Positions 14,869-34,863 of a stretch of 64,000 nucleotides of DNA are shown piece by piece. The first letter of the stretch is position 1. Each line of letters opens with the position of its first letter. The position numbers and the translations under genes were made by a program. Source of the DNA: Lachnospiraceae bacterium (GTDB taxonomy: Bacteria; Bacillota; Clostridia; Lachnospirales; Lachnospiraceae). The stretch spans positions 86,872-150,871 of the forward strand of contig JAFUXG010000006.1 in assembly GCA_017470935.1 (NCBI GenBank). The letters run 5' to 3'. The notes beneath the pieces were generated by a model, which was not told the origin of the DNA, made no database searches, and saw only the letters and a list, made by a program, of their open reading frames with translations.

Positions 14869-16962
14869 ATGAATATTGGTTTGTTTACAGACACATATTA
14901 TCCTGAATTAAATGGAGTTGCCAATTCAGTGTTTCTGCTGAAAAAGGAGCTGGAAAAGCGGGGGCATAATGTATATGTTATCACTACAAAGACCCCGGGA
15001 GCACCTGCTTCAGAAAAGGGTGTTTTCAGGGTTCCTTCCAGGGCGGTATCATTTGTTCCTGAAAGAAGGCTTGGACTTTTCTATCATCCAAAGATTGCGC
15101 TTCAGATACACAAAATGAAGCTTGATATAATACACACCAACACAGAATTCGCAATAGGGGTGTTCGGGCGGATAATGGCACATGAGCTGTTTGTGCCTGT
15201 GGTGCATACCTATCATACAATTTACGAGGATTATGCACACTATCTTAAGCAGTATATATCCAGCGAGAAGAGGGCAAAGCAGTTTGCAAAGATGTACAGC
15301 AAGTTCAGTGTAAGAGGGGCTGAGGAGCTTATAGTGCCTACAGAGAAGGTTGCTGAGCTTATGCGCAGATACAAGGTGAAGCCGGATATAGATGTAATTC
15401 CTACAGGAATCGATATCTCCAAGTTCAGGGACAGGGATAGTGATTCAAATAGGGCAAGGCTTAAGACATCCCTTGGTATTCCTAAGGACAACAAGGTGGT
15501 TTTGTATCTTGGAAGAGTTTCTGAGGAGAAGAACATCGATGAGCTGATGGATTACATGGATGATTATATGGATGAGCATGATGATGTAACATTTCTTGTG
15601 GTGGGTGACGGACCCCATAAGAGCACATTGGAAAAGAAAGCCAAGGGTCTTAAGAATAAGAAACAGATGATATTTGCAGGCTCCAAGCCATGGGATGAGA
15701 TCAATCATTACTATCAGATCGGGGATGTGTTTGTATCTGCCTCAACCAGTGAGACCCAGGGACTTACCTATATCGAAGCCCTTGCCTCCGGGGTTCCTGT
15801 TGTGGCAAGAAAGGACCCATGTCTTGACGGAGTGCTTTTCCACGGAGAGAATGGGTACGAATTTGAGGATGAGGAATCATTTATTTCAGGAATCAATGCT
15901 GTACTGTTAAATGGGGAGCACATTGATTACAGAAAAAGGGCTTTGGAGAGCGTTCAGAAATTCTCCACAGACCAGTTCGCTGCAAAGGTGGAGAATATAT
16001 ACTATCATGTCATAAAGAATCACAGAAATATGCTCATCCGCATGGCCAACAAGGTGGCTGACAAGATAGGCTATGAGCGGACGGGGGTTAAGCCCCTAGG
16101 CGGAAACATGGCGGTGGCCCTTGGCAATTCTGATATGGATGCAAGCAAGATCGCTCTTACCATGAAAAATCTTGACAGGCTATCCTATACTGAAGCAGCA
16201 AGGCTTATTGATACGGCACTTGAGAGCGGCATAACCATGTTCGACCATGCAGCTATATACGGAGATGGCAGATGTGAGGAGCTGTTTGGCCAGGTTATAT
16301 CCGAGAATAAGGGTATGAGGCAGCGTATGCGTATCCAGACCAAATGCGGATGCTATCAGGGCTATTACGATCTGTCCGGGGCTCATATACTTTCCTCTGT
16401 TGAAGACAGCCTAAGGCGGCTTCAGACAGACTGTATAGATGTGCTGCTGCTTGGAAGACCGGATTATCTTATGGATATTAATGAGGTTGCTGAGGCTATA
16501 TATCAGCTTAAGAAGAGTGGCAAGGTAAGACAGTTTGGTCTTTCACATTTTGACGGTGAGCAGATAGAGCTTCTGCTGGCATCCTGCAAGGAAACATTTC
16601 TCATTAACAGAATATCCTGCGGGGTTGCCTCTGGCGCAAAAATAGATGAAGCTTTAAAGCTTGTGAATAAATGTGGTCTATACGGGATCACTGTTCAGGC
16701 GACGGATACCCTTCCCACAGAGGAGGTCTCTCCGGAAACAATAGCTGTGATCAGGAGACTTTCGGAGGAATATAAGGTGTCAGAAAGGGCTATTGCAATG
16801 GCATGGAGCCTGCGGCTTCCTGCAATGCTGCAGGTGGCAGCAGATATTACTGATGCTGATGATATCAATGCAGTCTGTCAGGCGGCGAACATTAACATCA
16901 CAAGGAAGGAATGGTACGAGATTTTCTTTACAATTTCACACAAACATGATAAAGTTTTATAG
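14869..16962 (+). CDS. GT4 glycosyltransferase fused to an aldo/keto-reductase-like domain
   Basis: A 697-residue, uninterrupted fusion. Residues 1 to about 390 form a GT4 glycosyltransferase (FTDTYYPELNGVANSV, LGRVSEEKN, SASTSETQGLTYIEALASGVPVV), like enzymes that add sugars to diacylglycerol or lipid acceptors. From about residue 405 comes an aldo/keto reductase barrel of the YdhF type. It keeps Asp459, Tyr464 (DHAAIY) and Lys492 of the catalytic tetrad, but the His expected in LLLHRPD is Gly529 (LLLGRPD). The barrel may bind ligand or NADP without normal reduction. No frameshift or internal start suggests two separate genes. Confidence 0.85.
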   Translation: MNIGLFTDTYYPELNGVANSVFLLKKELEKRGHNVYVITTKTPGAPASEKGVFRVPSRAVSFVPERRLGLFYHPKIALQIHKMKLDIIHTNTEFAIGVFGRIMAHELFVPVVHTYHTIYEDYAHYLKQYISSEKRAKQFAKMYSKFSVRGAEELIVPTEKVAELMRRYKVKPDIDVIPTGIDISKFRDRDSDSNRARLKTSLGIPKDNKVVLYLGRVSEEKNIDELMDYMDDYMDEHDDVTFLVVGDGPHKSTLEKKAKGLKNKKQMIFAGSKPWDEINHYYQIGDVFVSASTSETQGLTYIEALASGVPVVARKDPCLDGVLFHGENGYEFEDEESFISGINAVLLNGEHIDYRKRALESVQKFSTDQFAAKVENIYYHVIKNHRNMLIRMANKVADKIGYERTGVKPLGGNMAVALGNSDMDASKIALTMKNLDRLSYTEAARLIDTALESGITMFDHAAIYGDGRCEELFGQVISENKGMRQRMRIQTKCGCYQGYYDLSGAHILSSVEDSLRRLQTDCIDVLLLGRPDYLMDINEVAEAIYQLKKSGKVRQFGLSHFDGEQIELLLASCKETFLINRISCGVASGAKIDEALKLVNKCGLYGITVQATDTLPTEEVSPETIAVIRRLSEEYKVSERAIAMAWSLRLPAMLQVAADITDADDINAVCQAANINITRKEWYEIFFTISHKHDKVL

Positions 16963-22447: not shown

Positions 22448-22510
22448 CTCACTTGAAGATAGAAAAATGAAGCAAGGATACGGAACTCTGATAGAAAGGT
22501 GGGATTTATC

Positions 22511-25090
22511 ATGAATGCAGAGAAATTTACTAAAAAATCATTGGAAGCAGTAGAGAATTGTGAGAAGCTTGCCTATGAATATAATAATCAGGAGATAGAC
22601 CAGGAGCATATTCTTTACAGCCTTCTTACTGTAGATGAAAGCCTTATAGCAAAGCTTATTGAGAAGATGGATATTGACCTTACTCATTTTTCAAAGGAGT
22701 CAGAGAAGCTGTTAGCCTACAGACCTAAGGTGAATGGCGGGAACCTGTTTACCAGCTCTGATTTTCAAAAGACCTTTGTTCATGCTGAGAAGGAAGCAAA
22801 GCAGATGGGAGATGAATACATCTCTGTAGAGCATATATTCCTTGCTTTGCTTAAATATCCTAACAAAGCTTTAAAGGGACTCTTTATGGGATATGGCATA
22901 ACCTCGGAAAGATTTCTTAAGGCACTTGCAGAGGTAAGGGGTAATCAGAGAGTGGAGAGTGATAATCCTGAGGCAGTATATGACAGCCTTGAGAAATATG
23001 GATATGACCTTGTAAAGCGCGCAAGAGAACAGAAGCTTGATCCTGTTATAGGACGTGATGCAGAGATTCGTAATATTATAAGAATCTTATCAAGAAAGAC
23101 AAAGAATAATCCGGTGCTTATCGGTGAACCCGGTGTGGGTAAGACTGCAGCAGTAGAGGGACTTGCCCAGCGTATAGTCAGAGGTGATGTGCCAGAGGGA
23201 CTTAAGGATAAGCAGATATTTGCTCTTGATATGGGAGCGCTTATTGCAGGCGCTAAGTACCGTGGTGAGTTTGAGGAGAGGCTTAAGGCTGTACTTGATG
23301 AGATCAAGAAGTCTGAGGGCGAGATCATTTTGTTCATTGATGAGCTCCATACTATTGTGGGTGCAGGTAAGACTGACGGTGCCCTTGACGCAGGTAATAT
23401 GTTAAAGCCAATGCTGGCAAGGGGTGAGCTTCACTGTATAGGTGCCACTACCCTTGATGAATACAGAAAGTATATAGAGACAGATGCTGCTCTTGAGCGC
23501 CGTTTCCAGCCCGTCACTGTCAATGAACCAACGGTGGAGGATACCATTTCAATCCTTCGTGGATTAAAGAACAGATATGAGGTATATCACGGCGTTAAGA
23601 TAAATGACAGCGCCATCGTGGCTGCAGCTACACTGTCTAACCGTTACATTTCAGACAGATTTCTTCCTGATAAGGCTATTGACCTTGTGGATGAAGCCTG
23701 TGCCCTTATTAAGACAGAGCTTGATTCAATGCCGGTAGAGCTTGATGAGATTCAAAGACGTATGATGCAGTTAGAGATCGAGGAGGCTGCCCTTAAGAAT
23801 GAAGAGGACAGGTTAAGTCAGGAAAGGCTTGTCAAGCTTCAGGAGGAGCTTACAGAACTGCGTGATAAATTTGCTAATTTAAAGGCCGACTGGGATAATG
23901 AGAAAATGGGCGTTGATAAGGTTCGTGAGATAAAGGAGCAGATCGAGGAGGTAAACAACGAGATTCAGATAGCCCAGAGAAATTATGATCTTAATAAGGC
24001 TGCGGAGCTTCAATACGGAAAGCTTCCTGAATTGCAGAAGCAGTTAGAGGCGGAAGAGATAAAACAGGGCGGCAAGGAGAATACCTTGGTGCATGAAAAC
24101 GTATCTGAGGAGGAGATTGCTGCCATTGTATCAAAATGGACGGGAATACCAGTGTCAAAGCTTACGGAGAGTGAGAGGAATAAGACACTCCATTTATCCG
24201 AGGCTCTTCATGAGAGGGTTGTGGGACAGGATGAGGCAGTGGAGCTTGTGTCTGATTCGATCATCCGCTCAAAGGCGGGAGTGAAGGACCCTACAAAGCC
24301 TATCGGATCATTTCTTTTCCTTGGACCAACTGGTGTGGGTAAGACAGAGCTTGCAAAGACTTTAGCCCAGGCGTTATTTGATAACGAAGCCAATATGGTG
24401 CGTATTGACATGAGTGAGTATATGGAGAAGCATTCAGTGGCAAGGCTTATAGGAGCTCCTCCGGGATATGTGGGATATGACGAGGGAGGACAGCTTACTG
24501 AGGCAGTGAGAAGAAAGCCTTATTCAGTGGTGCTTTTCGATGAGATCGAGAAGGCACATCCTGATGTGTTCAATGTGCTTTTGCAGGTGCTTGATGACGG
24601 ACGTATTACGGATTCCAAGGGCAAGACTGTGGACTTCAAAAATACCATTTTGATCATGACCTCCAATATTGGTTCTTCATACCTGTTAGATGGTATTAAT
24701 GACAAGGGCGAGATCACAGAGGATGCAAGGAATCAGGTATTAGAGGATCTTAAGCTTCATTTCAGACCGGAGTTCCTTAACCGTCTTGATGAGACAATAA
24801 TGTTTAAGCCACTTACAAAGGATAATATCGGTAATATAATCGATCTGTTAGTGGCTGATCTTAATAAGAGACTGGCAGAGAAGGAGCTTTCTCTTGACAT
24901 CACTGAGAATGCCAAGACCTATATTATGGAGCACGGATATGACCCGGTATACGGTGCAAGACCTCTTAAGCGTTACCTCCAGAAGAATGTGGATACCCTG
25001 GTTGCAAGGAAGATCCTTGAGGGAAGTGTTGGAGCAGAGGATGTAATAACCATTGATGTTGATGGCGACAGGCTTGTGGCAGGAAACTGA
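22511..25090 (+). CDS. clpB: ClpB disaggregase (Hsp100)
   Basis: An 859-residue AAA+ chaperone that, with DnaK, pulls proteins out of aggregates. It has a double Clp-N repeat (residues 1-145), a first AAA domain (Walker A GEPGVGKT at 205-212), a long coiled-coil middle domain (about 400-530) rich in Glu, and a second AAA domain (GPTGVGKT at 605-612; [11 protein letters not shown]). The middle domain marks ClpB rather than ClpC or ClpE. AAAGGTGG precedes ATG 22511. Control by HrcA through the CIRCE element is strongly indicated. Confidence 0.95.
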
Positions 25091-25103
25091 ATTGATTTTC
25101 CGA

Positions 25104-25142
25104 GGGACTCTACTGACGGTTTAGTCGGTAGAGTCCCTTTTC
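25104..25142 (+). terminator. clpB terminator (member of a local repeat family)
   Basis: GGGACTCTACTGAC (25104-25117) and GTCGGTAGAGTCCC (25124-25137) form a 14-base near-perfect stem followed by TTTTCT. Related terminators, with the same flanking CTACT...GGTGTG, occur at 27560, 29853 and 32482. Confidence 0.88.
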
Positions 25143-25204
25143 TACTTATGGGTGGTGTGATTTTTGACATGATGGGTTTATGCTTGAAAACATGGAGCAA
25201 TTCA

Positions 25205-25267
25205 TCTTATCGGGGGAAGGTAACGTATGCACCTCGTTTGACATTACTTTTCTTCCGATAAGATATG
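25205..25267 (+). promoter_or_regulatory. Inverted repeat over the promoter of the BcrA-like operon
   Basis: TCTTATCGG (25205-25213) pairs with CCGATAAGA (25255-25263), with further imperfect pairing inside. TTGACA at 25238-25243 lies in the loop, and a weak -10-like GATATG at 25262-25267 overlaps the right arm. The layout suggests an operator for an unlinked regulator; the promoter itself is not certain. Confidence 0.5.
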
Positions 25268-25291
25268 CAATGATAACGGAGGAGAGTACAA

Positions 25292-26053
25292 ATGTCAGAA
25301 ATTATATTTTCAGCAAAGAATGTAACAAAGCAGTACAAGGTAAAGTATAAAAGCTATAAGTTAAAAGCCCTTGATCATTTCAACATGGAAATCAGGCGTG
25401 GAGAAATCTATGGCTTTGTTGGGCGCAATGGCGCAGGAAAGACAACTCTTATGAGGATTCTTACCGGACGTGCCAGACAGACATCAGGGGAGATAAAGCT
25501 TTTTGGGCAAAGTGATGAGGAAGGAATGTGTGCTTTGCGGAAGAACATAGGAGCTATAATTGAACAGCCGGCACTTTACTTAGGTATGACAGCATATGAT
25601 AATCTTAAGGTGGTTTCACTCCAGAAGGGTACAAGTGATTACGATAAAATAGATGATATTCTTGAGTTAGTTGGACTTGCCGATGAAAAATGGAAGAAAG
25701 CAAAGGATTTTTCTCTTGGAATGAAGCAGCGGCTTGCTCTTGGCATTGCACTTATGGGTGAGCCTGAATTTCTTGTGCTTGATGAGCCGATAAATGGGCT
25801 TGATCCGGAAGGGATTGTTGAATTTCGTCAGCTTATTAAGAAATTAAACATAGAAAGAAATGTTACCGTTCTTATATCCAGTCATTTACTTGGTGAGCTT
25901 GACCAGCTCGCAACCTGCTATGGCTTTATAAAATCCGGAAAAATGATAGAGGAAATATCAGCGGTCACACTGCATGAAAGAATTAAGGGAATGCAGAATG
26001 AGACTTCGGGACTTGAAGGCTATTATATGTCTTTGATTAAGGGGGCAAAGTGA
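25292..26053 (+). CDS. BcrA-type ABC transporter ATP-binding protein
   Basis: A 253-residue ATPase with Walker A GRNGAGKTT, signature SLGMKQR, Walker B FLVLDEP and the switch region LISSHLL. It resembles the ATPase of bacitracin- and lantibiotic-immunity exporters (BcrA/LanF type). ACGGAGGAG precedes the start. Its stop overlaps the first permease gene by one base pair step (TGATG). It is the only ATPase beside six tandem permease genes, so it may serve all of them. Substrates are unknown. Confidence 0.88.
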   Translation: MSEIIFSAKNVTKQYKVKYKSYKLKALDHFNMEIRRGEIYGFVGRNGAGKTTLMRILTGRARQTSGEIKLFGQSDEEGMCALRKNIGAIIEQPALYLGMTAYDNLKVVSLQKGTSDYDKIDDILELVGLADEKWKKAKDFSLGMKQRLALGIALMGEPEFLVLDEPINGLDPEGIVEFRQLIKKLNIERNVTVLISSHLLGELDQLATCYGFIKSGKMIEEISAVTLHERIKGMQNETSGLEGYYMSLIKGAK

Positions 26054-26823
26054 TGAGGAATTTGATAAAGGCAGAGTGGTTCAAACTGTTAAAATCAAAT
26101 GTGTTCATTTGGCTATTAGTGTTTAATGGTATGACGGTATTAAGCACAGCATTTTTACTAATAATAAGATTTAACTACGGTTTTAATGGCGTTGCCGGGA
26201 ATGGATGTGATATGTATACGATAAGCATGAGTTATGTGCTTCATCATACACTTGTAGGTTATGTTCTTACATCTGTATTTTTGTGTGGAGATTTTTCTAA
26301 CAGAGTGTTTGGAATAAGTTTGTTAAGTGGATATACGCGAAGTAAGATTTTGCTGGCAAAGGTGATTGTATTGTTAATTGGATTAGTGTGTCTTTTCATA
26401 GAGTATGTGACGTTGACAACGGCTGTCGTGACGATTGGCAGTGGTGGCTTTGGAGTAGAGATAAATACAGATATACTAAAAGAAATGATACTGCTTATGT
26501 TATGCGGCATAGCGGGTTGTATTGCATCAGGATCATTTATGGTGCTTATGGCAGTCGTATTCAAAAAGCCTGTCAGGACAATTGTTATTGGAATGGTACT
26601 TATGTATATAGTAGGTCAAACTGAAAACCTGACAAGAGATAACCCGCCATTTTTTCTAAAATACATATATCAGTCACAAATGAATAATATAAGATGGTTA
26701 GGGGATGCGCGGGGGTCACTTAAAGAGTTCTCACCTGGAATGTGCTTGGCGGTTATGGCGGGAACATTTATTATATCAATGGTGATGGCGGTGTATGCGT
26801 TTAACAGGGCGGAGCTGAAATAA
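26053..26823 (+). CDS. ABC-2 permease, array copy 1
   Basis: A 256-residue, six-span permease (MRNLIKAEWFKLLKSNVF start, VYAFNRAELK end) of the LanE/BcrB-like type. It overlaps the ATPase stop, so the pair is coupled. It is the most divergent member of the array: the middle differs from copies 2-6, lacking the MWECTIMLLLYG and YKDWTGPCYWGG blocks, though it keeps the TRDNPP stretch and the FIISMV...AVYAFNRAELK ending. It is probably the original partner of the ATPase, from which or beside which the other copies arose. Confidence 0.85.
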   Translation: MRNLIKAEWFKLLKSNVFIWLLVFNGMTVLSTAFLLIIRFNYGFNGVAGNGCDMYTISMSYVLHHTLVGYVLTSVFLCGDFSNRVFGISLLSGYTRSKILLAKVIVLLIGLVCLFIEYVTLTTAVVTIGSGGFGVEINTDILKEMILLMLCGIAGCIASGSFMVLMAVVFKKPVRTIVIGMVLMYIVGQTENLTRDNPPFFLKYIYQSQMNNIRWLGDARGSLKEFSPGMCLAVMAGTFIISMVMAVYAFNRAELK

Positions 26824-26946
26824 GTAAATGTCGAAAATTGCCATTGATGGTGCTATTTAAATTGTTTGGTATAAAGTGATTTTGTGTTGCAAAGAAATAT
26901 AATTGACGATATAATTAATAATAAACGTAAGAAAGGGGTTTTGTAT

Positions 26947-27156
26947 ATGGCAGTAGATGTTTTGATTAATGAAGCACAAGGGTTGCCGGAAGACAGTATT
27001 AAAAAGGTCGTTGAATATATACATTTTCTAAAATATGAATTAAATAATAATGTTTCAAATAATAAGAAGAGAACTTTGGGACGTCTCGAAGGAAAAATGA
27101 CATATATGGCAGATGATTTTGACGCAACCCCGGAGTGTTTTAAGGAGTATATGTAA
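26947..27156 (+). CDS. Antitoxin of a PIN-domain toxin-antitoxin pair
   Basis: A 69-residue protein beginning MAVDVLINEAQGLPEDSIKKVVEYIHFLKYE, the helical DNA-binding/dimer type seen before PIN toxins (DUF2281-like), with a basic middle and an acidic toxin-binding tail. AAAGGGG precedes ATG 26947; the longer frame has no ribosome site. The stop is directly followed by the toxin ATG. It lies inside the permease array, between copies 1 and 2. Confidence 0.75.
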   Translation: MAVDVLINEAQGLPEDSIKKVVEYIHFLKYELNNNVSNNKKRTLGRLEGKMTYMADDFDATPECFKEYM

Positions 27157-27537
27157 ATGATTTTGTTAGATACGCACACTTTATTATGGGCATTTTTTCA
27201 GATGGAAAATATTCCAAGGCAGACTCAAAATCTAATAGAGGAGACGGATAAGGCTTATGTAAGCATAGCGTCTCTTTGGGAGATTGCAATAAAACAAAGC
27301 ATAGGGAAACTTAATCTGAATTGTTCAATTGGAGATATCGTTCGAATATGCGAGGAGGAAGGAATTGATATTTTGCATATTAGATCTGAACATCTTGATC
27401 AGATAAAATTGCTTCCCATGGTGCATAATGATCCATTTGACAGACTGATTATTTCTCAGGCAATTGTAGAGAACTTGTCTATTGTTTCAAAGGATCATGT
27501 GTTTGGTGATTATGATGTTAAGTTGATTTGGAAATGA
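27157..27537 (+). CDS. PIN-domain toxin (VapC-like ribonuclease)
   Basis: A 126-residue PIN-domain protein. LLDTHTLLWAF supplies the first acidic residue, SIASLWEIAIKQSIGKL the Glu, and DPFDRLIISQA the later Asp residues of the metal site; the family normally cleaves RNA, often tRNA. It starts on the base after the antitoxin stop. A terminator of the array family ends the pair at 27560. All four acidic positions look intact, so it is probably functional. Confidence 0.85.
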   Translation: MILLDTHTLLWAFFQMENIPRQTQNLIEETDKAYVSIASLWEIAIKQSIGKLNLNCSIGDIVRICEEEGIDILHIRSEHLDQIKLLPMVHNDPFDRLIISQAIVENLSIVSKDHVFGDYDVKLIWK

Positions 27538-27559
27538 TGAGGAATATAATGAAATTATA

Positions 27560-27599
27560 GGGATTCTACCAATAGGATAGTTGGTGGAATCCCTTTTCT
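27560..27599 (+). terminator. Array-family terminator (after PIN toxin)
   Basis: GGGATTCTACCAA (27560-27572) pairs with TTGGTGGAATCCC (27581-27593), with one wobble, followed by TTTTCTA. Nearly identical to the copy at 29853. Confidence 0.85.
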
Positions 27600-27690
27600 A
27601 CTGTTAGGAGGTGTGGGGGATTGGTATTGTATGATATTTTAAAAACGCAGACATTAGAAATATAATACCAAATGCGGGGGCGATAAGAAT

Positions 27691-28464
27691 ATGAGAGAAT
27701 TAGTAAAGGCGGAGTGGTTTAAATTAAAAAAGTCAAGGAAATTTAAAGTTTTAATTATAGTCAATTTGTCCGTATTTCTTGTGCAGTGGTTTATGTGTTC
27801 TATTAAGCTTTGGCCGCCTCCATCGCATCCGAAATCAGGGTATATGGATTTGGCACGGGGGTTACAGTATATTTTACACCATGAGGTGATTGGGTATGTG
27901 TTGGCAACAAGATATATATGCGAAGAATTTTCAGAAAGAACATGGGGAACAAGTTTGTTAAGCGGTTACTCAAGAACAAGACTGTTATTAGCAAAAATGC
28001 TTGTCTTTATTGGAACTAATGTATTTCTTGTGTTGGCCTTTACCGGAAGTCAAATGCTACAGACATCTATTGACAGTGGCGGCTACATAGAGACAGTAGA
28101 TGCTAAGATGTGGGAATGTACAATAATGTTGTTGCTATATGGAATATTCGGTTATGCAGTGTTTGGTGTTGTGATGGTTGCAACTGCAGTAGTTATAAAG
28201 AAGAAGGTTGGAACAATAATATTCGGAATGGTGAGTTCATACGTTATGACGCAGACGGATATTATTACGAGAGATAACCCATTACCATTCACAAAATACA
28301 CTTATGCATATCAGTTAAGGCATCTCAAATACAAGGACTGGACGGGACCATGTTACTGGGGAGGACCATTTGAGCCGGGAGTGTATATTGGTGTGATGGT
28401 GATAACATTTATCATATCAATGGTAGTGGCGGTGTATGCGTTTAACAGGGCGGAGTTAAAGTAA
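27691..28464 (+). CDS. ABC-2 permease, array copy 2
   Basis: A 257-residue permease with six hydrophobic spans. The N-terminal half (to about residue 125) differs from its neighbours, with WFMCSIKLWPPPSHPKSGYM as the variable first outer loop. From SGGYIETVDAKMWE onward it is almost identical to copies 3, 4 and 6, including MTQTDIITRDNPLPF and YKDWTGPCYWGGPF. There is no ATPase of its own; it presumably pairs with the BcrA-like ATPase at 25292. The upstream region, with CAGACATTAGAAATATAATA, is shared with copies 3 and 4. Confidence 0.85.
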   Translation: MRELVKAEWFKLKKSRKFKVLIIVNLSVFLVQWFMCSIKLWPPPSHPKSGYMDLARGLQYILHHEVIGYVLATRYICEEFSERTWGTSLLSGYSRTRLLLAKMLVFIGTNVFLVLAFTGSQMLQTSIDSGGYIETVDAKMWECTIMLLLYGIFGYAVFGVVMVATAVVIKKKVGTIIFGMVSSYVMTQTDIITRDNPLPFTKYTYAYQLRHLKYKDWTGPCYWGGPFEPGVYIGVMVITFIISMVVAVYAFNRAELK

Positions 28465-28495
28465 CGCCATATTTGGTGGGGCATAAAAAGCTATA

Positions 28496-28672
28496 TTAAT
28501 TTGCAATCAAACGGTCTCTTGTTTTGGCAGCCAATTCAAAAGCCTTTAACATAGCCGGCGTAGATTCCGGTGAGTCATCGTCATAAACAATGGGTACATT
28601 TTTTAAATTATCTAATTGCTGCAGTTGTTCCTCTGATAGAGGTGATATGTCTTTAACTATAATCTACGCCAT
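28496..28672 (-). pseudogene. Broken antitoxin-like gene
   Basis: On the minus strand, AGAGGAG precedes ATG 28672, but codon 3 is TAG. After it the frame stays open for 55 codons, reading IIVKDISPLSEEQLQQLDNL and later YDDDSPESTPAMLKAF, and ends AAKTRDRLIAN. This is the pattern of a small antitoxin paired with RelE/HigB toxins, but no toxin gene is beside it. A single base change could explain the stop. It has a good promoter on the same strand (28810-28839). Confidence 0.55.
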
Positions 28673-28719
28673 AATATATTCTCCTCTCTTGGTTTGTGGC
28701 TCTTCTTGCAGAAATAAGT

Positions 28720-28788
28720 CTATTCAAGTAGTTTTTGTTTGAGTCCCATGAGAATGTCAATGTGTATATCCCTTTTGCTTATGTACAT
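28720..28788 (-). other. Possible 22-codon reading frame before the broken antitoxin
   Basis: On the minus strand ATG 28788 opens MYISKRDIHIDILMGLKQKLLE and stops at TAG 28720. It sits between the promoter and the antitoxin remnant. There is no clear ribosome binding site, so it could be a leader peptide, a remnant of a larger gene or chance. I do not recognise it. Confidence 0.3.
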
Positions 28789-28809
28789 ATGTTGTCTGTG
28801 ATTATCTTA

Positions 28810-28839
28810 ATTATACTATTATTGTAAGTGTAAAGTCAA
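28810..28839 (-). promoter_or_regulatory. Minus-strand promoter for the antitoxin remnant
   Basis: TTGACT, an 18-base spacer and TATAAT on the minus strand (plus coordinates 28834-28839 and 28810-28815). Confidence 0.6.
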
Positions 28840-28963
28840 TTATTTATACAGAATATAAAAGGCGGTTGTCAAACAAAATTGTGGGGCTGTTAATGATAGA
28901 TACTGATACTTTTGAAATGCAGGTATTAGAAATATAAATATCAAATGTGGGGAGTGATATAAA

Positions 28964-29737
28964 ATGAGGGATTTAATAAGGGCGGAGTGGTTCAAATTGT
29001 CGAAGTCAAGGACATTTAAGGTTTTGGTTATACTTAATCTGACAGTGTTTTTTGTGGATTGGATTATGTATTCTTTTAGGTTATGCAATCCACCGCCACG
29101 ACCAAAGTTAGGATATATGCTTTTGCCTACAGAACTACAGTATATTCTTCATCATGAGGTTATTGGGTATGTGTTGGCAGCTACATATATTTGTAGTGAA
29201 TTCTCCCAAAGAACATGGGGAACAAGTTTGTTAAGCGGTTACGCAAGAAAAAAACTGTTGCTATCAAAAATGATAGTTTTTGTTGGAGCAAATGTATTTT
29301 TGGTGTTGGTTTATACCGTTAGTGGAACACTTCTTACAACTATATACAGTGGCGGCTACATAGAAACAGTAAATGCAGAAATGTGGGAATGTACAATAAT
29401 GCTGCTGTTATATGGAATACTCGGTTATTCAGTGTTTGGTGTTGTGATGGTTGCAACTGCAGTGGTTATAAAGAAGAAGGTCGGAACAATCATATTCGGA
29501 ATGCTGAGTTCATATATTATGACGCAGACGGATATTATTACGAGAGACAATCCATTACCATTCACAAAATATACTTATGCATATCAGTTAAGGCATCTCA
29601 AATACAAGGACTGGACGGGACCATGTTACTGGGGAGGACCATTTGAGCCGGGAGTGTATCTTGGAGTGATGGCGGTGACATTTATTGTATCAATGGTGGT
29701 GGCGGTGTATGCGTTTAATCGGGTGGAGTTGAAGTGA
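28964..29737 (+). CDS. ABC-2 permease, array copy 3
   Basis: A 257-residue permease very close to copies 2, 4 and 6 from residue 125 to the end. Its distinctive region is residues 20-60 (NLTVFFVDWIMYSFRLCNPP, PRPKLGYMLLP), covering the end of span 1 and the first outer loop, and the span near 95-120. It follows 500 bases containing the broken antitoxin. GGGGAG precedes the ATG. It ends in VYAFNRVELK, as copy 4 does, where the other copies end RAELK or RAEMK. Confidence 0.85.
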   Translation: MRDLIRAEWFKLSKSRTFKVLVILNLTVFFVDWIMYSFRLCNPPPRPKLGYMLLPTELQYILHHEVIGYVLAATYICSEFSQRTWGTSLLSGYARKKLLLSKMIVFVGANVFLVLVYTVSGTLLTTIYSGGYIETVNAEMWECTIMLLLYGILGYSVFGVVMVATAVVIKKKVGTIIFGMLSSYIMTQTDIITRDNPLPFTKYTYAYQLRHLKYKDWTGPCYWGGPFEPGVYLGVMAVTFIVSMVVAVYAFNRVELK

Positions 29738-29852
29738 TCGGAATGCACGTCAATACATTAATAGATTATTGATGAAGGTAAAAAAACAGAGCAAGGCGGT
29801 TATAAAAATATAGGAACTAATAAGCGAAATTTTAAAATAGAATAATTAAAAA

Positions 29853-29892
29853 GGGATTCTACCAATAGGATAGTTGGTGGGATCCCTTTTCT
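29853..29892 (+). terminator. Array-family terminator (after copy 3)
   Basis: GGGATTCTACCAA (29853-29865) pairs with TTGGTGGGATCCC (29874-29886), followed by TTTTCTA; flanks match the copy at 27560. Confidence 0.85.
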
Positions 29893-29984
29893 ACTGTTAG
29901 TCGGTGTGAAATTTGGGTATTGTGTGATATTTTTGAGATGCAGACATTAGAAATATAATACTAAATGTGGGGAGTGATATAAGT

Positions 29985-30758
29985 ATGAAGGATTTGATAA
30001 AGGCGGAGTGGTTCAAACTGTCAAAATCAAGGACATTTAAGGTTTTGATTATACTTAATTTGTTAGTGCTTATTATAGATTGGATTGAATATTCAGTTGG
30101 TTATTATACACCGCCTGCACATTCGAAAGAGGGATGGAAGATGTTGGGAAGTGAATTACAATATATTCTTCATCATGAGGTTATTGGATATGTTTTAGTA
30201 ATAACATATATATGTAATGAGTTTTCATATAGAACATTTGGGATAAGCATGTTAAGTGGTTATTTCAGAATAAAGCTTCTTCTTGCTAAAATCATTGTTT
30301 TTGTAGTTGCAAATGTTTTTTTAGTGTTAATATATTCTGTTAGCGGAACTGTAGTTGCAACTTGTTTTAGTGGCGGCTACATAGAAACAGTAAATGCAGA
30401 AATGTGGGAATGCACAATAATGCTGTTGTTATATGGAATACTGGGGTATGCAGTGTTTGGTGTAGTGATGATTGCAACTGCGGTAGTTATAAAGAAGAAG
30501 GTTGGAACAATCATATTCGGAATGGTGAGTTCTTATGTTATGACACAGACGGATATAATAACCAGAGATAACCCATTGCCTTTTACAAAATACACTTATG
30601 CATATCAGTTAAGGCATCTCAAATACAAGGACTGGACCGGACCTTGTAATTGGGGAGGACCATTTGAGCCGGGAGTGTATCTTGGAGTGATGGCGGCAAC
30701 ATTTATTATATCAATGGTAGTGGCGGTGTATGCGTTTAATCGGGTGGAGTTGAAGTGA
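29985..30758 (+). CDS. ABC-2 permease, array copy 4
   Basis: A 257-residue permease. ATG 29985 follows GGGGAG at a normal distance; the longer frame start is not needed. Variable positions again cluster in residues 20-60 (LVLIIDWIEYSVGYYTPP) and 90-125, while the C-terminal half is nearly the same as copies 2, 3 and 6, apart from PCNWGG in place of PCYWGG. The 60 bases upstream are close to those of copies 2 and 3, so each was probably copied with its leader. Confidence 0.85.
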   Translation: MKDLIKAEWFKLSKSRTFKVLIILNLLVLIIDWIEYSVGYYTPPAHSKEGWKMLGSELQYILHHEVIGYVLVITYICNEFSYRTFGISMLSGYFRIKLLLAKIIVFVVANVFLVLIYSVSGTVVATCFSGGYIETVNAEMWECTIMLLLYGILGYAVFGVVMIATAVVIKKKVGTIIFGMVSSYVMTQTDIITRDNPLPFTKYTYAYQLRHLKYKDWTGPCNWGGPFEPGVYLGVMAATFIISMVVAVYAFNRVELK

Positions 30759-30882
30759 TGGATAATCGTACTTAGCATTTGATAATTTTACCAAAGGTTC
30801 TGTCGCAGCATACAGTTGTGGCAGCGCCTTATAGAATAGATGTGATATCAAATAGAAAATTCGCATGTAAGGAGATAGGGTC

Positions 30883-31656
30883 GTGAGAGATTTGATAAAG
30901 ACAGAGTTGTTCAAGCTTAAAAAGTCGAGAACATTTAAGATTTTGATTATCATTAATTTATCGGTAATAATTACTTTTATACTTGGAGTTGGAATTGGAT
31001 ATTATGATGTTGAGCCACATTCGTTAGTTGGTTATAAGATGTATAAAAGCTCCGTACAATACATATTGCATCATGGGCTTGTTGGTTACATACTGGCATC
31101 AGGCTTTATATGCAGCGAGTATTCGCAAAATACCATTGGCAGCGGTTTGGTGAGCGGTCATTCACGTACAAAGCTTCTGCTAGCGAAAATGATAGTGTTT
31201 GTGTGCGGGGTTGTAATTCTATTTTTAATATATCTGGCGGCATCAACATTTATTACATCATTTTATACAGGTGGATTTGTTGAGAAAATGACATTGCAGA
31301 TATGGGAATACATAGTTGTTTTATTGTCATATTCTGTTATTGGCTATGCCGTATATGGCGTTTTGATGGCATGTGTTGCGATAGTGATTAAAGGGAAAAT
31401 AAAGACTATTGTGATTGGTATGGGTATGGAATATGCTATGACACAGACTGATATAATAACAAAAGATAATCCACTGCCATTTATAAAATACACTTTTGCC
31501 TATCAGTTAAGGCATCTGCGATACAAGGACTGGGTGGGCCCGGGGTATTGGGGAGGATCATTTGAGCCGGGAGTGTATATTGGTGTGATGGTGGTAACAT
31601 TCATTATATCAATGGTGGTGGCGGTGTATGCGTTTAACAGGGCGGAGATGAAATGA
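30883..31656 (+). CDS. ABC-2 permease, array copy 5 (divergent)
   Basis: A 257-residue permease starting at GTG 30883 after AAGGAGA. It shares the start (MRDLIKTELFKLKKSRTFK) and the last third (MTQTDIITKDNPLPF, YKDWVGPGYWGG, VYAFNRAEMK), but the region 20-180 is distinct from copies 2-4 and 6, with WEYIVVLLSYSVIGYAVYGVLMA in place of the usual block. Sequence identity therefore rises again toward the 3' end, which suggests gene conversion with its neighbours. Confidence 0.85.
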   Translation: MRDLIKTELFKLKKSRTFKILIIINLSVIITFILGVGIGYYDVEPHSLVGYKMYKSSVQYILHHGLVGYILASGFICSEYSQNTIGSGLVSGHSRTKLLLAKMIVFVCGVVILFLIYLAASTFITSFYTGGFVEKMTLQIWEYIVVLLSYSVIGYAVYGVLMACVAIVIKGKIKTIVIGMGMEYAMTQTDIITKDNPLPFIKYTFAYQLRHLRYKDWVGPGYWGGSFEPGVYIGVMVVTFIISMVVAVYAFNRAEMK

Positions 31657-31693
31657 AAACAAAAGAAGATTATAATTGAGGGATGATAAGACT

Positions 31694-32467
31694 ATGAGAG
31701 ACTTGATAAAGGCAGAATGGTTTAAATTATTGAAATCAAAGACCTTTAGGGTGCTTATAATACTTAATTTATCAGTATTCTTTGTCCAGTGGTATATGTA
31801 TTACTTTGAGTTTTGGAATCCTCCACGACGTACCCAATTAGGATATATTGAATTGGGAGCAGGATTACAGTATATCTTGCATCATGAAGTGGTCGGGTAT
31901 GTGTTAGCGGCAACATATGTGTGTGGCGAGTTTTCAAATAGAACGTGGGGAATAGGATTGTTATGTGGTAAATCACGAGCCGCAATACTATTGTCAAAGA
32001 TGTTCGTGTTTGTTGTAGCTAATGTATTTTTGGTGCTGGTTTTTACTGGAACAGAAATCCTTCAGACATCTATTTACAGTGGCGGATACATAGAAACGGT
32101 AAATGCAGAAATGTGGGAATGTACAATAATGTTGTTGCTATATGGAATACTCGGTTATGCAGTATTTGGTGTTGTGATGGTTGCAACTGCAGTGGTTATA
32201 AAGAAGAAGGTTGGAACAATCATATTTGGAATGTTGAGTTCATATATTATGACGCAGATGGATATAATTACCAGGGATAACCCATTACCATTTATAAAAT
32301 ATACTTATGCATATCAGTTGAGGCACCTCAAATACAAGGACTGGACCGGACCATGTTATTGGGGTGGACCATTTGAGCCGGGAGTGTATATTGGTGTGAT
32401 GGTGGTAACATTCATTATATCAATGGTGGTGGCGTTGTATGCGTTTAATAGGGCGGAGTTGAAATAA
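31694..32467 (+). CDS. ABC-2 permease, array copy 6
   Basis: A 257-residue permease starting at ATG 31694, 37 bases after copy 5, so probably on the same transcript. It has its own variable first loop (YYFEFWNPPRRTQLGYIELG) and a charged, altered loop near residue 85 (LLCGKSRAAILLSKM, replacing the usual SGYSR). The second half again matches copies 2-4. An array-family terminator follows at 32482, closing the set. Confidence 0.85.
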   Translation: MRDLIKAEWFKLLKSKTFRVLIILNLSVFFVQWYMYYFEFWNPPRRTQLGYIELGAGLQYILHHEVVGYVLAATYVCGEFSNRTWGIGLLCGKSRAAILLSKMFVFVVANVFLVLVFTGTEILQTSIYSGGYIETVNAEMWECTIMLLLYGILGYAVFGVVMVATAVVIKKKVGTIIFGMLSSYIMTQMDIITRDNPLPFIKYTYAYQLRHLKYKDWTGPCYWGGPFEPGVYIGVMVVTFIISMVVALYAFNRAELK

Positions 32468-32481
32468 TAAGTATTATACTG

Positions 32482-32509
32482 AGTCTCTACCGATGGTAGA
32501 GGCTTTTTC
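32482..32509 (+). terminator. Array-family terminator (after copy 6)
   Basis: AGTCTCTACC (32482-32491) pairs with GGTAGAGGCT (32495-32504), followed by TTTTCT; flanking CTACTTAT...GGTGTG matches the clpB terminator. Confidence 0.8.
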
Positions 32510-32629
32510 TACTTATAAAGGGTGTGTTTTTCATTTTCTGTCATTTATGCTATTATATGTAGAAAGGCCATTCTATAAAAGTATCTATGCAAAGATACTG
32601 AATTTTAAGATGACGGAAAGGATGATGAC

Positions 32630-33391
32630 ATGGATCAGCAAAAAATCGGAAGGTTCATTGCGGAAATGAGAAAGAAACAGGGGTATACCCAGAAGGAGAT
32701 TGCGGAACAGCTTGGTATCAGCGACAAGGCAGTCAGCAAATGGGAGACAGGCAGGAGCATGCCGGATAATTCCATAATGCTTCCCCTTTGTGAGCTTCTT
32801 AATATCAATGTCAATGAACTGCTGTCCGGGGAATCCCTTTCCGTCACGGAATATAATAGAAAGGCGGAAGAGAATATGATGAATTTGATGAAGGACAGTG
32901 ATGAGAGAAAGAGGCATGCAAGAAGGACAAGAATATCCATGGTAATATGGGTAGTAACGCTTATGCTGCTGATGATTATTATGATTTCCAATGTTGAAAC
33001 ATCGGATTTGGCAAACCTGCTTTATTATATTGATGTGCCGGGAATTAACTATGTGGTATCTATAGTGTTGATTTCTCTGGCGTGTTCAGGGCAGATAAAT
33101 GATTTCTTCAGGGCATTTTTCTATGTGGTGCATGGAACAGAGGACGAGCAGAAGATGGAGATGTCCATTAAGGCGGTTCGATTTGCAGAAAGGACATTTC
33201 TTGTGGGTGGTGCTTTTGTGACGGTTTTCTTCGCCATTTATGTATTAAGCCATGTGGATGTGATAGCGAAGACAAACCAGGTTTTATGTGCTAATCTGGC
33301 GGTAATGCTGACGACAATGGTCTATGGATGTCTTGGGGCGTTGCTGCTTGCACCCATAAGAAGCAGACTTGAGAAAATGCAGATTATGTGA
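32630..33391 (+). CDS. XRE-family regulator with a membrane domain
   Basis: A 253-residue protein. The N-terminal Cro/C1 helix-turn-helix (residues 9-62: YTQKEIAEQLGISDKAVSKWETGRSMP) is joined by a helical linker to four likely transmembrane segments (about 103-120, 133-150, 188-208, 220-240). Membrane-anchored XRE proteins often sense drugs or envelope stress through the membrane domain. Its neighbours, the permease array and the MATE pump 120 bases downstream, are plausible targets; that link is inferred. Confidence 0.82.
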   Translation: MDQQKIGRFIAEMRKKQGYTQKEIAEQLGISDKAVSKWETGRSMPDNSIMLPLCELLNINVNELLSGESLSVTEYNRKAEENMMNLMKDSDERKRHARRTRISMVIWVVTLMLLMIIMISNVETSDLANLLYYIDVPGINYVVSIVLISLACSGQINDFFRAFFYVVHGTEDEQKMEMSIKAVRFAERTFLVGGAFVTVFFAIYVLSHVDVIAKTNQVLCANLAVMLTTMVYGCLGALLLAPIRSRLEKMQIM

Positions 33392-33510
33392 GTGGCGGAA
33401 GGCAAAGAGTAGATAAAAAAGAAGCTCCGGCATTGAGTTTTTCCGAAATAAGTTATATACTTTATGTTGTTTGGATATTATTAAGAAACAACTAAGAGGA
33501 TGAACTTACT

Positions 33511-34863
33511 ATGGAAACTAAGATGGATATGCTGCATGGTCCGCTTCTCAAAAAAATATTGATATTTGCATTTCCGATTATTGTCGGAAGTGTGTTGCAG
33601 CAGCTTTTTTCTGCAGTGGATATTGCTGTGGTGGGACTTGTTGGAGACAGTAACGGGCAGGCGGCAATCGGGGCCAACACCAGCCTGATTGCCCTGTTCG
33701 TTAATTTCTTTGTGGGACTGACTGTGGGAATCAATGTGGTCATCGGCAACTATATTGGACGAAGCCACAAGGAACGTATATCAACGACGGTTCACACCGC
33801 TGTTTGTTTTGCGGTTTTTTCCGGTATTGGCTTATTACTTCTGGTTGAAATGGTGGCGCGCCCCATGCTGGTTATTATGGCTACACCGGATGAGGTGATT
33901 GACCTGGCGGTGACTTACTTGAGAATCTATGCTCTTGGCATGCCATTTATTCTTTTATATAATTTCGGAGCTGCGGTGCTAAGAACGGTGGGAGATACAA
34001 AGAGACCCTTGTATGCACTTCTGGCAGCGGGATTCATCAATATGCTATTGGACGTGCTGCTGACAGTATGTCTTCATCTTGGTGTTGTTGGTGTGGCTGT
34101 AGCCACAGCCTTTTCCAATGTTATCAGTTCATCATTGGTCATATGGTTCTTAACACATGAAGATGGAGACATCAGGCTTGATCTGTCAAACCTTCATATC
34201 AATGGTGGGGACCTTATTAAACTGCTTAAAATCGGGCTGCCGTCAGGATTTCAGACTATGGTTTTTTCAATTGCAAATCTATGCATTCAGACTGCAATCA
34301 ATTCTTATGGACCGGCTGCGGTTGCCGGCAACGCCGTGGCGCTTATATTCGAGGTGCTGGCATATTATGTTGTGACAGGTATCAATCAGGCTGCTGTAAC
34401 ATTTACCAGTGTGAATTACGGCGCGGGTAATCTGAAAAGGTGTCTTAAGGTGTTCTTAATTTCTATGGCTGTTGCCGTAGCTCTTACCAATATAGTTAAT
34501 TATTCATTTATCTTTGGTGAAAAGTTCTTTGTAGGTCTGTTTACCTCAGACACGGCGGTGGCAGAGTGTGTATATGAGAGATTCAGGGTAGTTCTTGCGG
34601 TACAGTTTCTTATATGCAGTTATGAGATAAGCGGGTCGGTGCTCAGGGGCTTTGGGCATTCCATGCTCCCTGCGGTAATCACTATCTTTGGAACCTGTGT
34701 TCTTAGGATCATATGGGTCAATACTGTGTGTGTAAAATTCAGGGACATTTCTTATGTATTTGTGGTGTATCCGATGTCATGGATTGTGACCGGAATCGCC
34801 GTAGTAACGGCATTTGTCATCACCTTCAGAAGATTATATGATAGCAAAACAAAAAGATATTAG
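33511..34863 (+). CDS. MATE-family multidrug efflux pump
   Basis: A 450-residue protein with about 12 hydrophobic segments and two homologous halves. It starts MLHGPLLKKILIFAFPIIVGSVLQQLFSAVDIAVVG, which is typical of the DinF/NorM branch of MATE transporters in Firmicutes. These use a Na+ or H+ gradient to export cationic drugs. It follows the membrane XRE regulator, which may control it. The gene appears complete. The substrate cannot be told from the sequence. Confidence 0.88.
   Translation: METKMDMLHGPLLKKILIFAFPIIVGSVLQQLFSAVDIAVVGLVGDSNGQAAIGANTSLIALFVNFFVGLTVGINVVIGNYIGRSHKERISTTVHTAVCFAVFSGIGLLLLVEMVARPMLVIMATPDEVIDLAVTYLRIYALGMPFILLYNFGAAVLRTVGDTKRPLYALLAAGFINMLLDVLLTVCLHLGVVGVAVATAFSNVISSSLVIWFLTHEDGDIRLDLSNLHINGGDLIKLLKIGLPSGFQTMVFSIANLCIQTAINSYGPAAVAGNAVALIFEVLAYYVVTGINQAAVTFTSVNYGAGNLKRCLKVFLISMAVAVALTNIVNYSFIFGEKFFVGLFTSDTAVAECVYERFRVVLAVQFLICSYEISGSVLRGFGHSMLPAVITIFGTCVLRIIWVNTVCVKFRDISYVFVVYPMSWIVTGIAVVTAFVITFRRLYDSKTKRY

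What the first reader, a model, noticed from the sequence alone, without database searches (positions are those of the whole stretch)
26053..32467. Six tandem ABC permease paralogs served by one ATPase, with conserved ends and variable outer loops
Copies 2, 3, 4 and 6 are almost identical from about residue 125 to the end but differ in residues 20-60 and 85-125, which cover the first outer loop and adjoining spans. Copy 5 shares only its ends with them. The pattern suggests repeated duplication with gene conversion of the 3' half and diversification of the part that meets the substrate. It may be a cassette system for resistance to varied peptides or antibiotics, in which alternative permeases share one motor.
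Basis: partly seen in the sequence, partly recalled or inferred. Interest (0 to 1): 0.8.

Follow-up and report, generated by a model that had tools for sequence, protein, structure and literature searches.

The report
One pump motor, six permease copies
A bacterium, probably from an animal gut, carries six neighbouring copies of the membrane half of a pump but a single neighbouring motor gene; four of the copies have stayed much alike over one half of the gene while the other half drifted apart, which suggests a small set of alternative pumps, perhaps against varied antimicrobial peptides.

Summary
Six intact ABC-2 permease genes follow one ATPase gene and precede a membrane-bound HTH regulator gene. 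Copies 2, 3, 4 and 6 are 64% identical over residues 1-125 and 92% identical from 126 on; silent sites show the same step. In c1 and seven related permeases the step is reversed (59% N half, 48% C half; N higher in 26 of 28 pairs), so family constraint does not explain it; recombination between copies does. Relatives point to an ancestral ATPase + one permease: 37 of 39 loci show one recognised permease. Copies 2-6 form a clade (97/100). Samples of 397 family and 392 order genomes held no second such array. No segment shows dN above dS. Terminator-like hairpins split the locus into ATPase-c1-VapBC, c2-c3 and c4-c5-c6. Best reading: a BcrAB/LanFEG-type exporter whose permease was amplified and diversified beside one motor. 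Motor sharing and peptide resistance are inferred, not shown.

The parts
25102..25139 (+). terminator-like hairpin T0 after clpB, upstream boundary of the locus
   Evidence: z -6.4
25205..25263 (+). long inverted repeat ahead of the ATPase gene, possible operator or leader
   Evidence: z -2.3; 3 of 200 shuffles fold as well; function inferred
25292..26053 (+). ABC ATPase, nearest to BcrA/LanF type, 253 aa
   Evidence: PF00005 2e-30; best NCBIfam model TIGR03740 at 213.8 bits, below its 309.75 cut-off
26053..26823 (+). permease copy 1 (c1); start overlaps ATPase stop; divergent from c2-c6
   Evidence: PF12698 18.3 bits, below cut-off; tree
26947..27156 (+). VapB-like antitoxin gene (DUF2281), inside the locus
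   Evidence: NF050009 5.7e-14 (52 bits, cut-off 60) and PF10047 1.9e-10 on ORF 26884-27153; start at 26947 read from the sequence
27157..27537 (+). VapC-like PIN-domain gene
   Evidence: PF01850 2.5e-13
27543..27679 (+). block of terminator-like hairpin T1 (27559-27594) and leader before c2, repeated before c4
   Evidence: 137-nt repeat, 83% identical; hairpin (z -5.3); leader core
27691..28464 (+). permease copy 2 (c2)
   Evidence: PF12730 2.5e-13
28964..29737 (+). permease copy 3 (c3)
   Evidence: PF12730 8.6e-10
29836..29972 (+). second copy of the block before c4: hairpin T2 (29849-29890) and leader
   Evidence: (z -6.4); T2 is not in the list of the pattern scan
29985..30758 (+). permease copy 4 (c4)
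   Evidence: PF12730 6.6e-8 (from the longer start 29967)
30883..31656 (+). permease copy 5 (c5); closest to c2-c4 and c6 at its start and over about its last 65 residues
   Evidence: PF12730 3.6e-12
31694..32467 (+). permease copy 6 (c6)
   Evidence: PF12730 2.9e-9 (from the longer start 31676)
32481..32505 (+). terminator-like hairpin T3 after c6
   Evidence: z -4.9
32630..33391 (+). regulator with N-terminal HTH and four hydrophobic segments (BcrR-like layout)
   Evidence: PF12844 8.8e-15; four hydrophobic segments

Best explanation
The locus descends from a two-component ABC-2 exporter of the BcrAB kind: one ATPase, one permease, and in some relatives a membrane protein gene like the regulator after them. 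In this lineage the permease gene was amplified to six copies between the ATPase and the regulator. Recombination among copies 2-6 (and the tail of copy 1) kept the 3' part alike, while TM1, outer loop 1, the first cytoplasmic loop and TM3 diverged. All copies are intact and show dN below dS, so they are probably made and used. The most likely working is that the single ATPase drives permease dimers of different make-up (homodimers, or c1 with one of c2-c6), giving alternative pumps that clear different membrane-active peptides or cell-wall antibiotics, with the regulator sensing the envelope threat. Shown: gene order, paralogy, the 5'/3' contrast and its reversal in relatives, and the single-permease layout in most relatives. 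Inferred: motor sharing, dimer make-up, substrate, separate expression, role of the regulator.
For: One recognised permease in 37 of 39 relatives' loci, and an ORF similar to the regulator right after the permease in 5 of 39. c2-c6 clade 97/100, c1+c2-c6 81/84. Paralogs N 0.64, C 0.92; c1 and L029-L035 N 0.59, C 0.48, N higher in 26 of 28 pairs, and in 606 of 703 pairs among all 38 other rows of A3. Silent differences 0.34-0.49 in the 5' part against 0.17-0.26 in the 3' part for the six pairs of c2, c3, c4, c6, p 0.0003-0.014. Six intact ORFs, dN below dS. Closest solved permease by profile is PmtD, nearly full length but weak, E 0.018. No LanC-like match in the genome, so no sign of lantibiotic self-immunity by that one marker. 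Passages of PMC4239024 give LanFEG as one ATPase with two permeases and BcrAB as one with one; passages of PMC3968067 give BcrR as the one-component transmembrane regulator of bcrAB.
Against: No substrate, expression or interaction data. The ATPase is below the cut-off of each of the 25 NCBIfam models shown. No significant silent-site tract after global correction. The largest outer loop is nearly fixed and the cytoplasmic loop varies, which simple diversification of substrate loops does not predict. In the first tree c1 was unresolved. The genome is 77.75% complete, so another ATPase serving some copies cannot be excluded. No structure model could be made.
Confidence: 0.55

Rival explanations
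1. A fixed heteromeric transporter of LanFEG kind: c1 always pairs with a c2-c6 type subunit, and the extra copies mainly raise dosage rather than change specificity.
For: c2-c6 form a clade apart from c1, as LanE and LanG are dissimilar (PMC4239024 passages). L036 has two permeases after one ATPase; G023 (L014) has a more distant permease on each side of an ATPase.
Against: Four copies that are 64% identical in the N half are more diverse than dosage needs. Most relatives' loci show one permease.
Confidence: 0.25
2. The variable 5' halves were imported: chimeric genes formed by crossing over between diverged permeases within a common 3' part, rather than divergence in place with conversion.
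For: 5' silent differences (0.34-0.49) approach those against c1 and c5 (0.42-0.65), while 3' ones are lower. Silent-site break at alignment codon 109 (p 0.0056).
Against: c2, c3, c4, c6 stay one clade and whole-gene searches gave no closer outside relative; 5' halves alone were not searched.
Confidence: 0.2
3. Unselected tandem amplification still being homogenised by recombination, with no new function.
For: No dN above dS; a VapBC pair and an antisense remnant-like frame sit in the gaps.
Against: All six frames are intact although 5' dS between copies is about 0.8 to 2.6, which unselected copies would be unlikely to keep.
Confidence: 0.12
4. Assembly artefact, with collapsed or chimeric copies.
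For: Draft genome in 75 contigs; shared exact stretches up to 87 nt.
Against: The copies differ along their length, have different upstream sequences and lie in one contig of at least 150 kb.
Confidence: 0.03

Closest known systems
BcrAB(D)-BcrR bacitracin resistance system
   Same: ATPase with small ABC-2 permease and a neighbouring HTH regulator with membrane segments
   Different: six permeases instead of one; regulator downstream rather than upstream; ATPase 253 aa where the review gives about 280-320; BcrD not looked for; substrate unknown
LanFEG / CprABC lantibiotic immunity and resistance transporters
   Same: one ATPase with more than one ABC-2 permease; the ATPase scores best with the lantibiotic-protection model TIGR03740, though below cut-off
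   Different: two dissimilar permeases there, six here with five in one clade; no LanC-like match in the genome; LanI not looked for
PmtABCD phenol-soluble modulin exporter
   Same: PmtD chains are the only solved structures matched by the permease profile (4 distinct sequences, E 0.018-0.024)
   Different: weak similarity; Pmt has two ATPases and two permeases (recalled)
Shared ATPases MsmK, FhuC, MceG
   Same: one motor serving several transporters is described there (titles and starts of abstracts seen)
   Different: those are importers; here an exporter-type permease array beside its motor

Membership tests
BcrAB type | ATPase plus one ABC-2 permease of about 200-250 aa | tested here: not met
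   six permeases of 256-257 aa; 37 of 39 relatives' loci show one
BcrAB type | ATPase of about 280-320 aa (PMC4239024) | tested here: not met
   253 aa; relatives L035, L036, L074 have 304-314 aa
BcrAB type | BcrR-like membrane regulator beside it | tested here: inconclusive
   HTH plus four hydrophobic segments; homology to BcrR itself not tested
BcrAB type | bacitracin resistance | not testable with these tools
   needs experiment
LanFEG type | LanF ATPase with two dissimilar permeases | tested here: not met
   six permeases in two lineages, c1 and c2-c6
LanFEG type | TIGR03740 lantibiotic-protection ATPase model | tested here: not met
   213.8 bits, cut-off 309.75
LanFEG type | linked lantibiotic synthesis genes (in producers only) | tested here: inconclusive
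   no PF05147 match in the genome, which is 77.75% complete; only this marker tried, and non-producers may carry such transporters (PMC4239024)
ABC2_membrane_4 (PF12730) permeases | match over the curated cut-off | tested here: met
   c2-c6 all over 27 bits; c1 not listed for it and only sub-threshold for PF12698

The most novel reading that the evidence does not exclude
A modular exporter: one motor and a locally kept set of interchangeable permease subunits in separate transcription units, whose 3' half is held alike by recombination so that any copy fits the motor or partner, while the 5' half is free to diversify specificity; copy number and variants would differ among strains.
Probability: 0.2. 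Interest if true: 0.75.

Novelty: new variant of a known kind. Interest (0 to 1): 0.5.

Why it matters
If the copies are alternative subunits for one motor, the locus is a natural domain-comparison experiment: it would show which part of an ABC-2 exporter sets specificity and which part must stay fixed to couple to the ATPase or partner. The part held alike includes the largest predicted outer loop, contrary to simple expectation. It would also be a case of concerted evolution in a bacterial transporter array.

Tried and rejected
Rejected: family-wide constraint as the cause of the 3' conservation, because relatives show the opposite gradient. Rejected: copies 2-6 as silent donors for c1, since c1 is the most divergent copy (42-46%) and only its ends look exchanged. 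No support found for plasmid or viral spread: no match in plasmids by DNA or protein, none confirmed in viral contigs; other mobile origins not tested. No Rfam match at gathering scores in 25000-33600. Folds of the leaders were not consistent: z -1.9 before c2, -0.4 before c3, +0.5 before c4.

Led nowhere: first genome-contig scan with A1 (100 stretches, no relative); one arm of the inverted repeat sought elsewhere in the window (chance level); PADLOC scan, where only the ATPase and the regulator matched, which I take as general ATPase and HTH matches; synteny around clpB: in the 19 other genus genomes with a clpB match no close match to the ATPase or permeases lay in the flanks held, about 1.5 kb; one has a 30%-identical ATPase on the other side of clpB, and in two the downstream side is cut by a contig end.

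Searches for a printed precedent of such an array listed none that I recognised from titles and starts of abstracts; the library is partial. Papers of which I saw passages only: PMC4239024, PMC8003753, PMC10269533, PMC3968067; other papers, listings only.

Corrections of my own work: the longest-exact-match figures were wrong for neighbouring copies because the stretches overlapped, and were redone. Two notes (and its source) are corrected here: 37, not 36, of 39 loci have one permease.

Rows left out: the tree leaves out L035_10695, L044_4762 and L030_498, which are in that, and adds L074. Alignment A3 leaves out L051-L053 and both pieces of the split L035 permease. The eight-row control leaves out L036, L037 and the distant rows; one search gives the wider sets.
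Full report
What is there. Downstream of the ClpB-like gene (22499-25090; name recalled from its sequence) a terminator-like hairpin (25102-25139) is followed by an ABC ATPase gene and six permease genes, another hairpin (32481-32505) and a regulator gene. The ATPase has PF00005 at 2e-30; its best NCBIfam model is the lantibiotic-protection ATPase TIGR03740, at 213.8 bits against a cut-off of 309.75. Copies 2-6 match PF12730 above its cut-off; copy 1 gives only a sub-threshold PF12698 match. The regulator has an HTH_19 domain and four hydrophobic segments.

The contrast along the genes. Copies 2, 3, 4 and 6 vary at 68 of 125 positions in residues 1-125 and at 19 of 132 in 126-257. The same holds at silent sites: among codons that encode the same residue, 34-49% differ in the 5' part and 17-26% in the 3' part, in all six pairs (p from 0.0003 to 0.014). 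A breakpoint test on silent variation gives p=0.0056 with the break at alignment codon 109. Copy 5 is closer to each of these four at silent sites after alignment codon 192 than before it (p from 4e-6 to 0.008). Copy 1 is closer in its last 22 codons: with copy 5, 15 of 16 same-residue codons are identical against 27 of 74 in the middle (p=3e-5); with copies 2, 3 and 6 p is 0.008, 0.026 and 0.013; with copy 4 it is not significant (p=0.11). These pairwise p values are not corrected for the number of pairs, and the pairs are not independent.

Results that cut the other way. A run test on silent sites alone found no run significant after global correction. On all polymorphic sites the four-copy test gave one significant run (c2-c3, alignment nt 258-291, global p 0.0175), and the six-copy test gave three pairs (c2-c3 reached by 0 of 2000 shuffles, c3-c4 0.0185, c3-c6 0.0255); those runs include amino-acid constraint. 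So homogenisation rests on the contrast and its reversal in relatives, not on recent individual tracts.

Control from relatives. c1 and one permease each from L029-L035 average 59% identity in the N half and 48% in the C half; N exceeds C in 26 of 28 pairs, and the two exceptions are nearly identical pairs. Among all 38 other rows of alignment A3, N exceeds C in 606 of 703 pairs, is lower in 86 and tied in 11. The family tends to conserve the N half; the array does the opposite in 6 of 6 pairs.

Where the variation lies. Family-averaged hydropathy gives six segments (20-38, 58-76, 103-121, 151-169, 175-193, 233-251). Variable positions among c2, c3, c4, c6: residues 1-19 8/19, TM1 12/19, outer loop 1 15/19, TM2 5/19, cytoplasmic loop 1 13/26, TM3 11/19, outer loop 2 9/29, TM4 3/19, cytoplasmic loop 2 0/5, TM5 3/19, outer loop 3 2/39, TM6 5/19, last six 1/6. 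Outer loop 1 and cytoplasmic loop 1 are less alike among these paralogs (0.36 and 0.65) than among the eight comparison rows (0.43 and 0.73). dN is below dS in each segment where dS could be estimated. The topology is a prediction from hydropathy and the positive N terminus; no model could be made.

Ancestral layout and distribution. The second of two scans of genome contigs (one genome for each of 84,980 species; contigs under 3 kb not held; the window's own genome may be left out) used two peptide patterns and gave 39 loci with a relative. In 37 of 39 one permease ORF is recognised, L036 has two, and L035 has an intact one plus a second, split one (profile E<=1e-5, so very divergent neighbours would be missed, and some loci are cut by contig ends, such as L030 and L037). 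In L029, L032, L033, L034 and L036 an ORF similar to the regulator follows the permease; in L029 and L036 it is only about 157 aa. In the genus (26 genomes held, ours included) 4 match at 1e-6 and only ours has more than one strong match. G040 has an ATPase (65%) and one permease; G020 has one permease and a shortened ATPase frame near a contig end. In a sample of 397 family genomes 6 match at 1e-12, each but ours once; in a sample of 392 order genomes only ours matches at 1e-20. c2-c6 form one clade (97/100) and group with c1 (81/84); in the earlier tree with more rows c2-c6 had 95/94 and c1 was unresolved. The host is inferred to belong to the Lachnospiraceae, because contigs of two same-genus genomes agree in length and position with records titled uncultured Clostridium sp. 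and uncultured Lachnospiraceae bacterium. Its genome is 77.75% complete.

Expression units. Hairpins followed by T-rich stretches lie before c2, before c4 and after c6 (z -5.3, -6.4, -4.9). The pattern scan lists those before c2 and after c6 but not that before c4, and its total of 5 is near the shuffled mean of 4.4. c2 and c4 share a 137-nt block of hairpin and leader at 83% identity; the leader core matches at these two places only in the window, and c3 has a related leader by alignment. This suggests units ATPase-c1-vapBC, c2-c3 and c4-c5-c6. Promoter-like sites number 44 against 35 +/- 6 in shuffles, so separate promoters are inference.

Function. BcrAB transporters confer resistance to bacitracin and LanFEG transporters to lantibiotics; the former has one permease and the latter two (PMC4239024, passages). 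BcrR is the one-component transmembrane regulator of bcrAB (PMC3968067, passages; also listed among transmembrane regulators in PMC10269533, passages). The window combines an ATPase nearest the lantibiotic-protection model, permeases of about BcrB size and a regulator of BcrR-like layout. No LanC-like match was found in the genome. Export of, or protection from, peptides or cell-wall antibiotics is therefore the most likely role, as inference. Sharing of one motor is described for importers (titles and starts of abstracts).

Verdict. A real expansion, found once in the genomes searched; ordinary in its parts, unusual in number and in its concerted 3' half. The claim of alternative specificities is open and testable.

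Noticed in passing
window 26947-27537: A VapBC-type toxin-antitoxin pair sits inside the array between permease copies 1 and 2.
   Followed up: partly
window 28496-28663, - strand: In the 499-nt gap between copies 2 and 3 an antisense 55-codon open stretch lies just after a ribosome-site-like sequence, an ATG and an early in-frame stop; it looks like a gene remnant, with no Pfam or PADLOC match up to E 0.01.
   Followed up: partly
window 25205-25263: Long inverted repeat just upstream of the ATPase gene; candidate operator for the downstream regulator.
   Followed up: partly
window 14869-16962: One ORF joins a glycolipid-synthase-like glycosyltransferase part (residues 1-389) to an aldo/keto-reductase-like part (about 436-684).
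   Followed up: no
L012/L030 1-1256 (G020): A relative with an intact permease frame but a shortened ATPase frame at the start of its contig.
   Followed up: no
L035 9741-10946: A second, split permease and a partial ATPase frame follow the intact ATPase; upstream lie genes that look like a LytTR-type response regulator and a kinase (these names are recalled, not searched).
   Followed up: no
window 25292-26053: This ATPase (253 aa) and that of G040 (265 aa) are about 40-60 residues shorter than those of other relatives (304-314 aa in L035, L036, L074).
   Followed up: no
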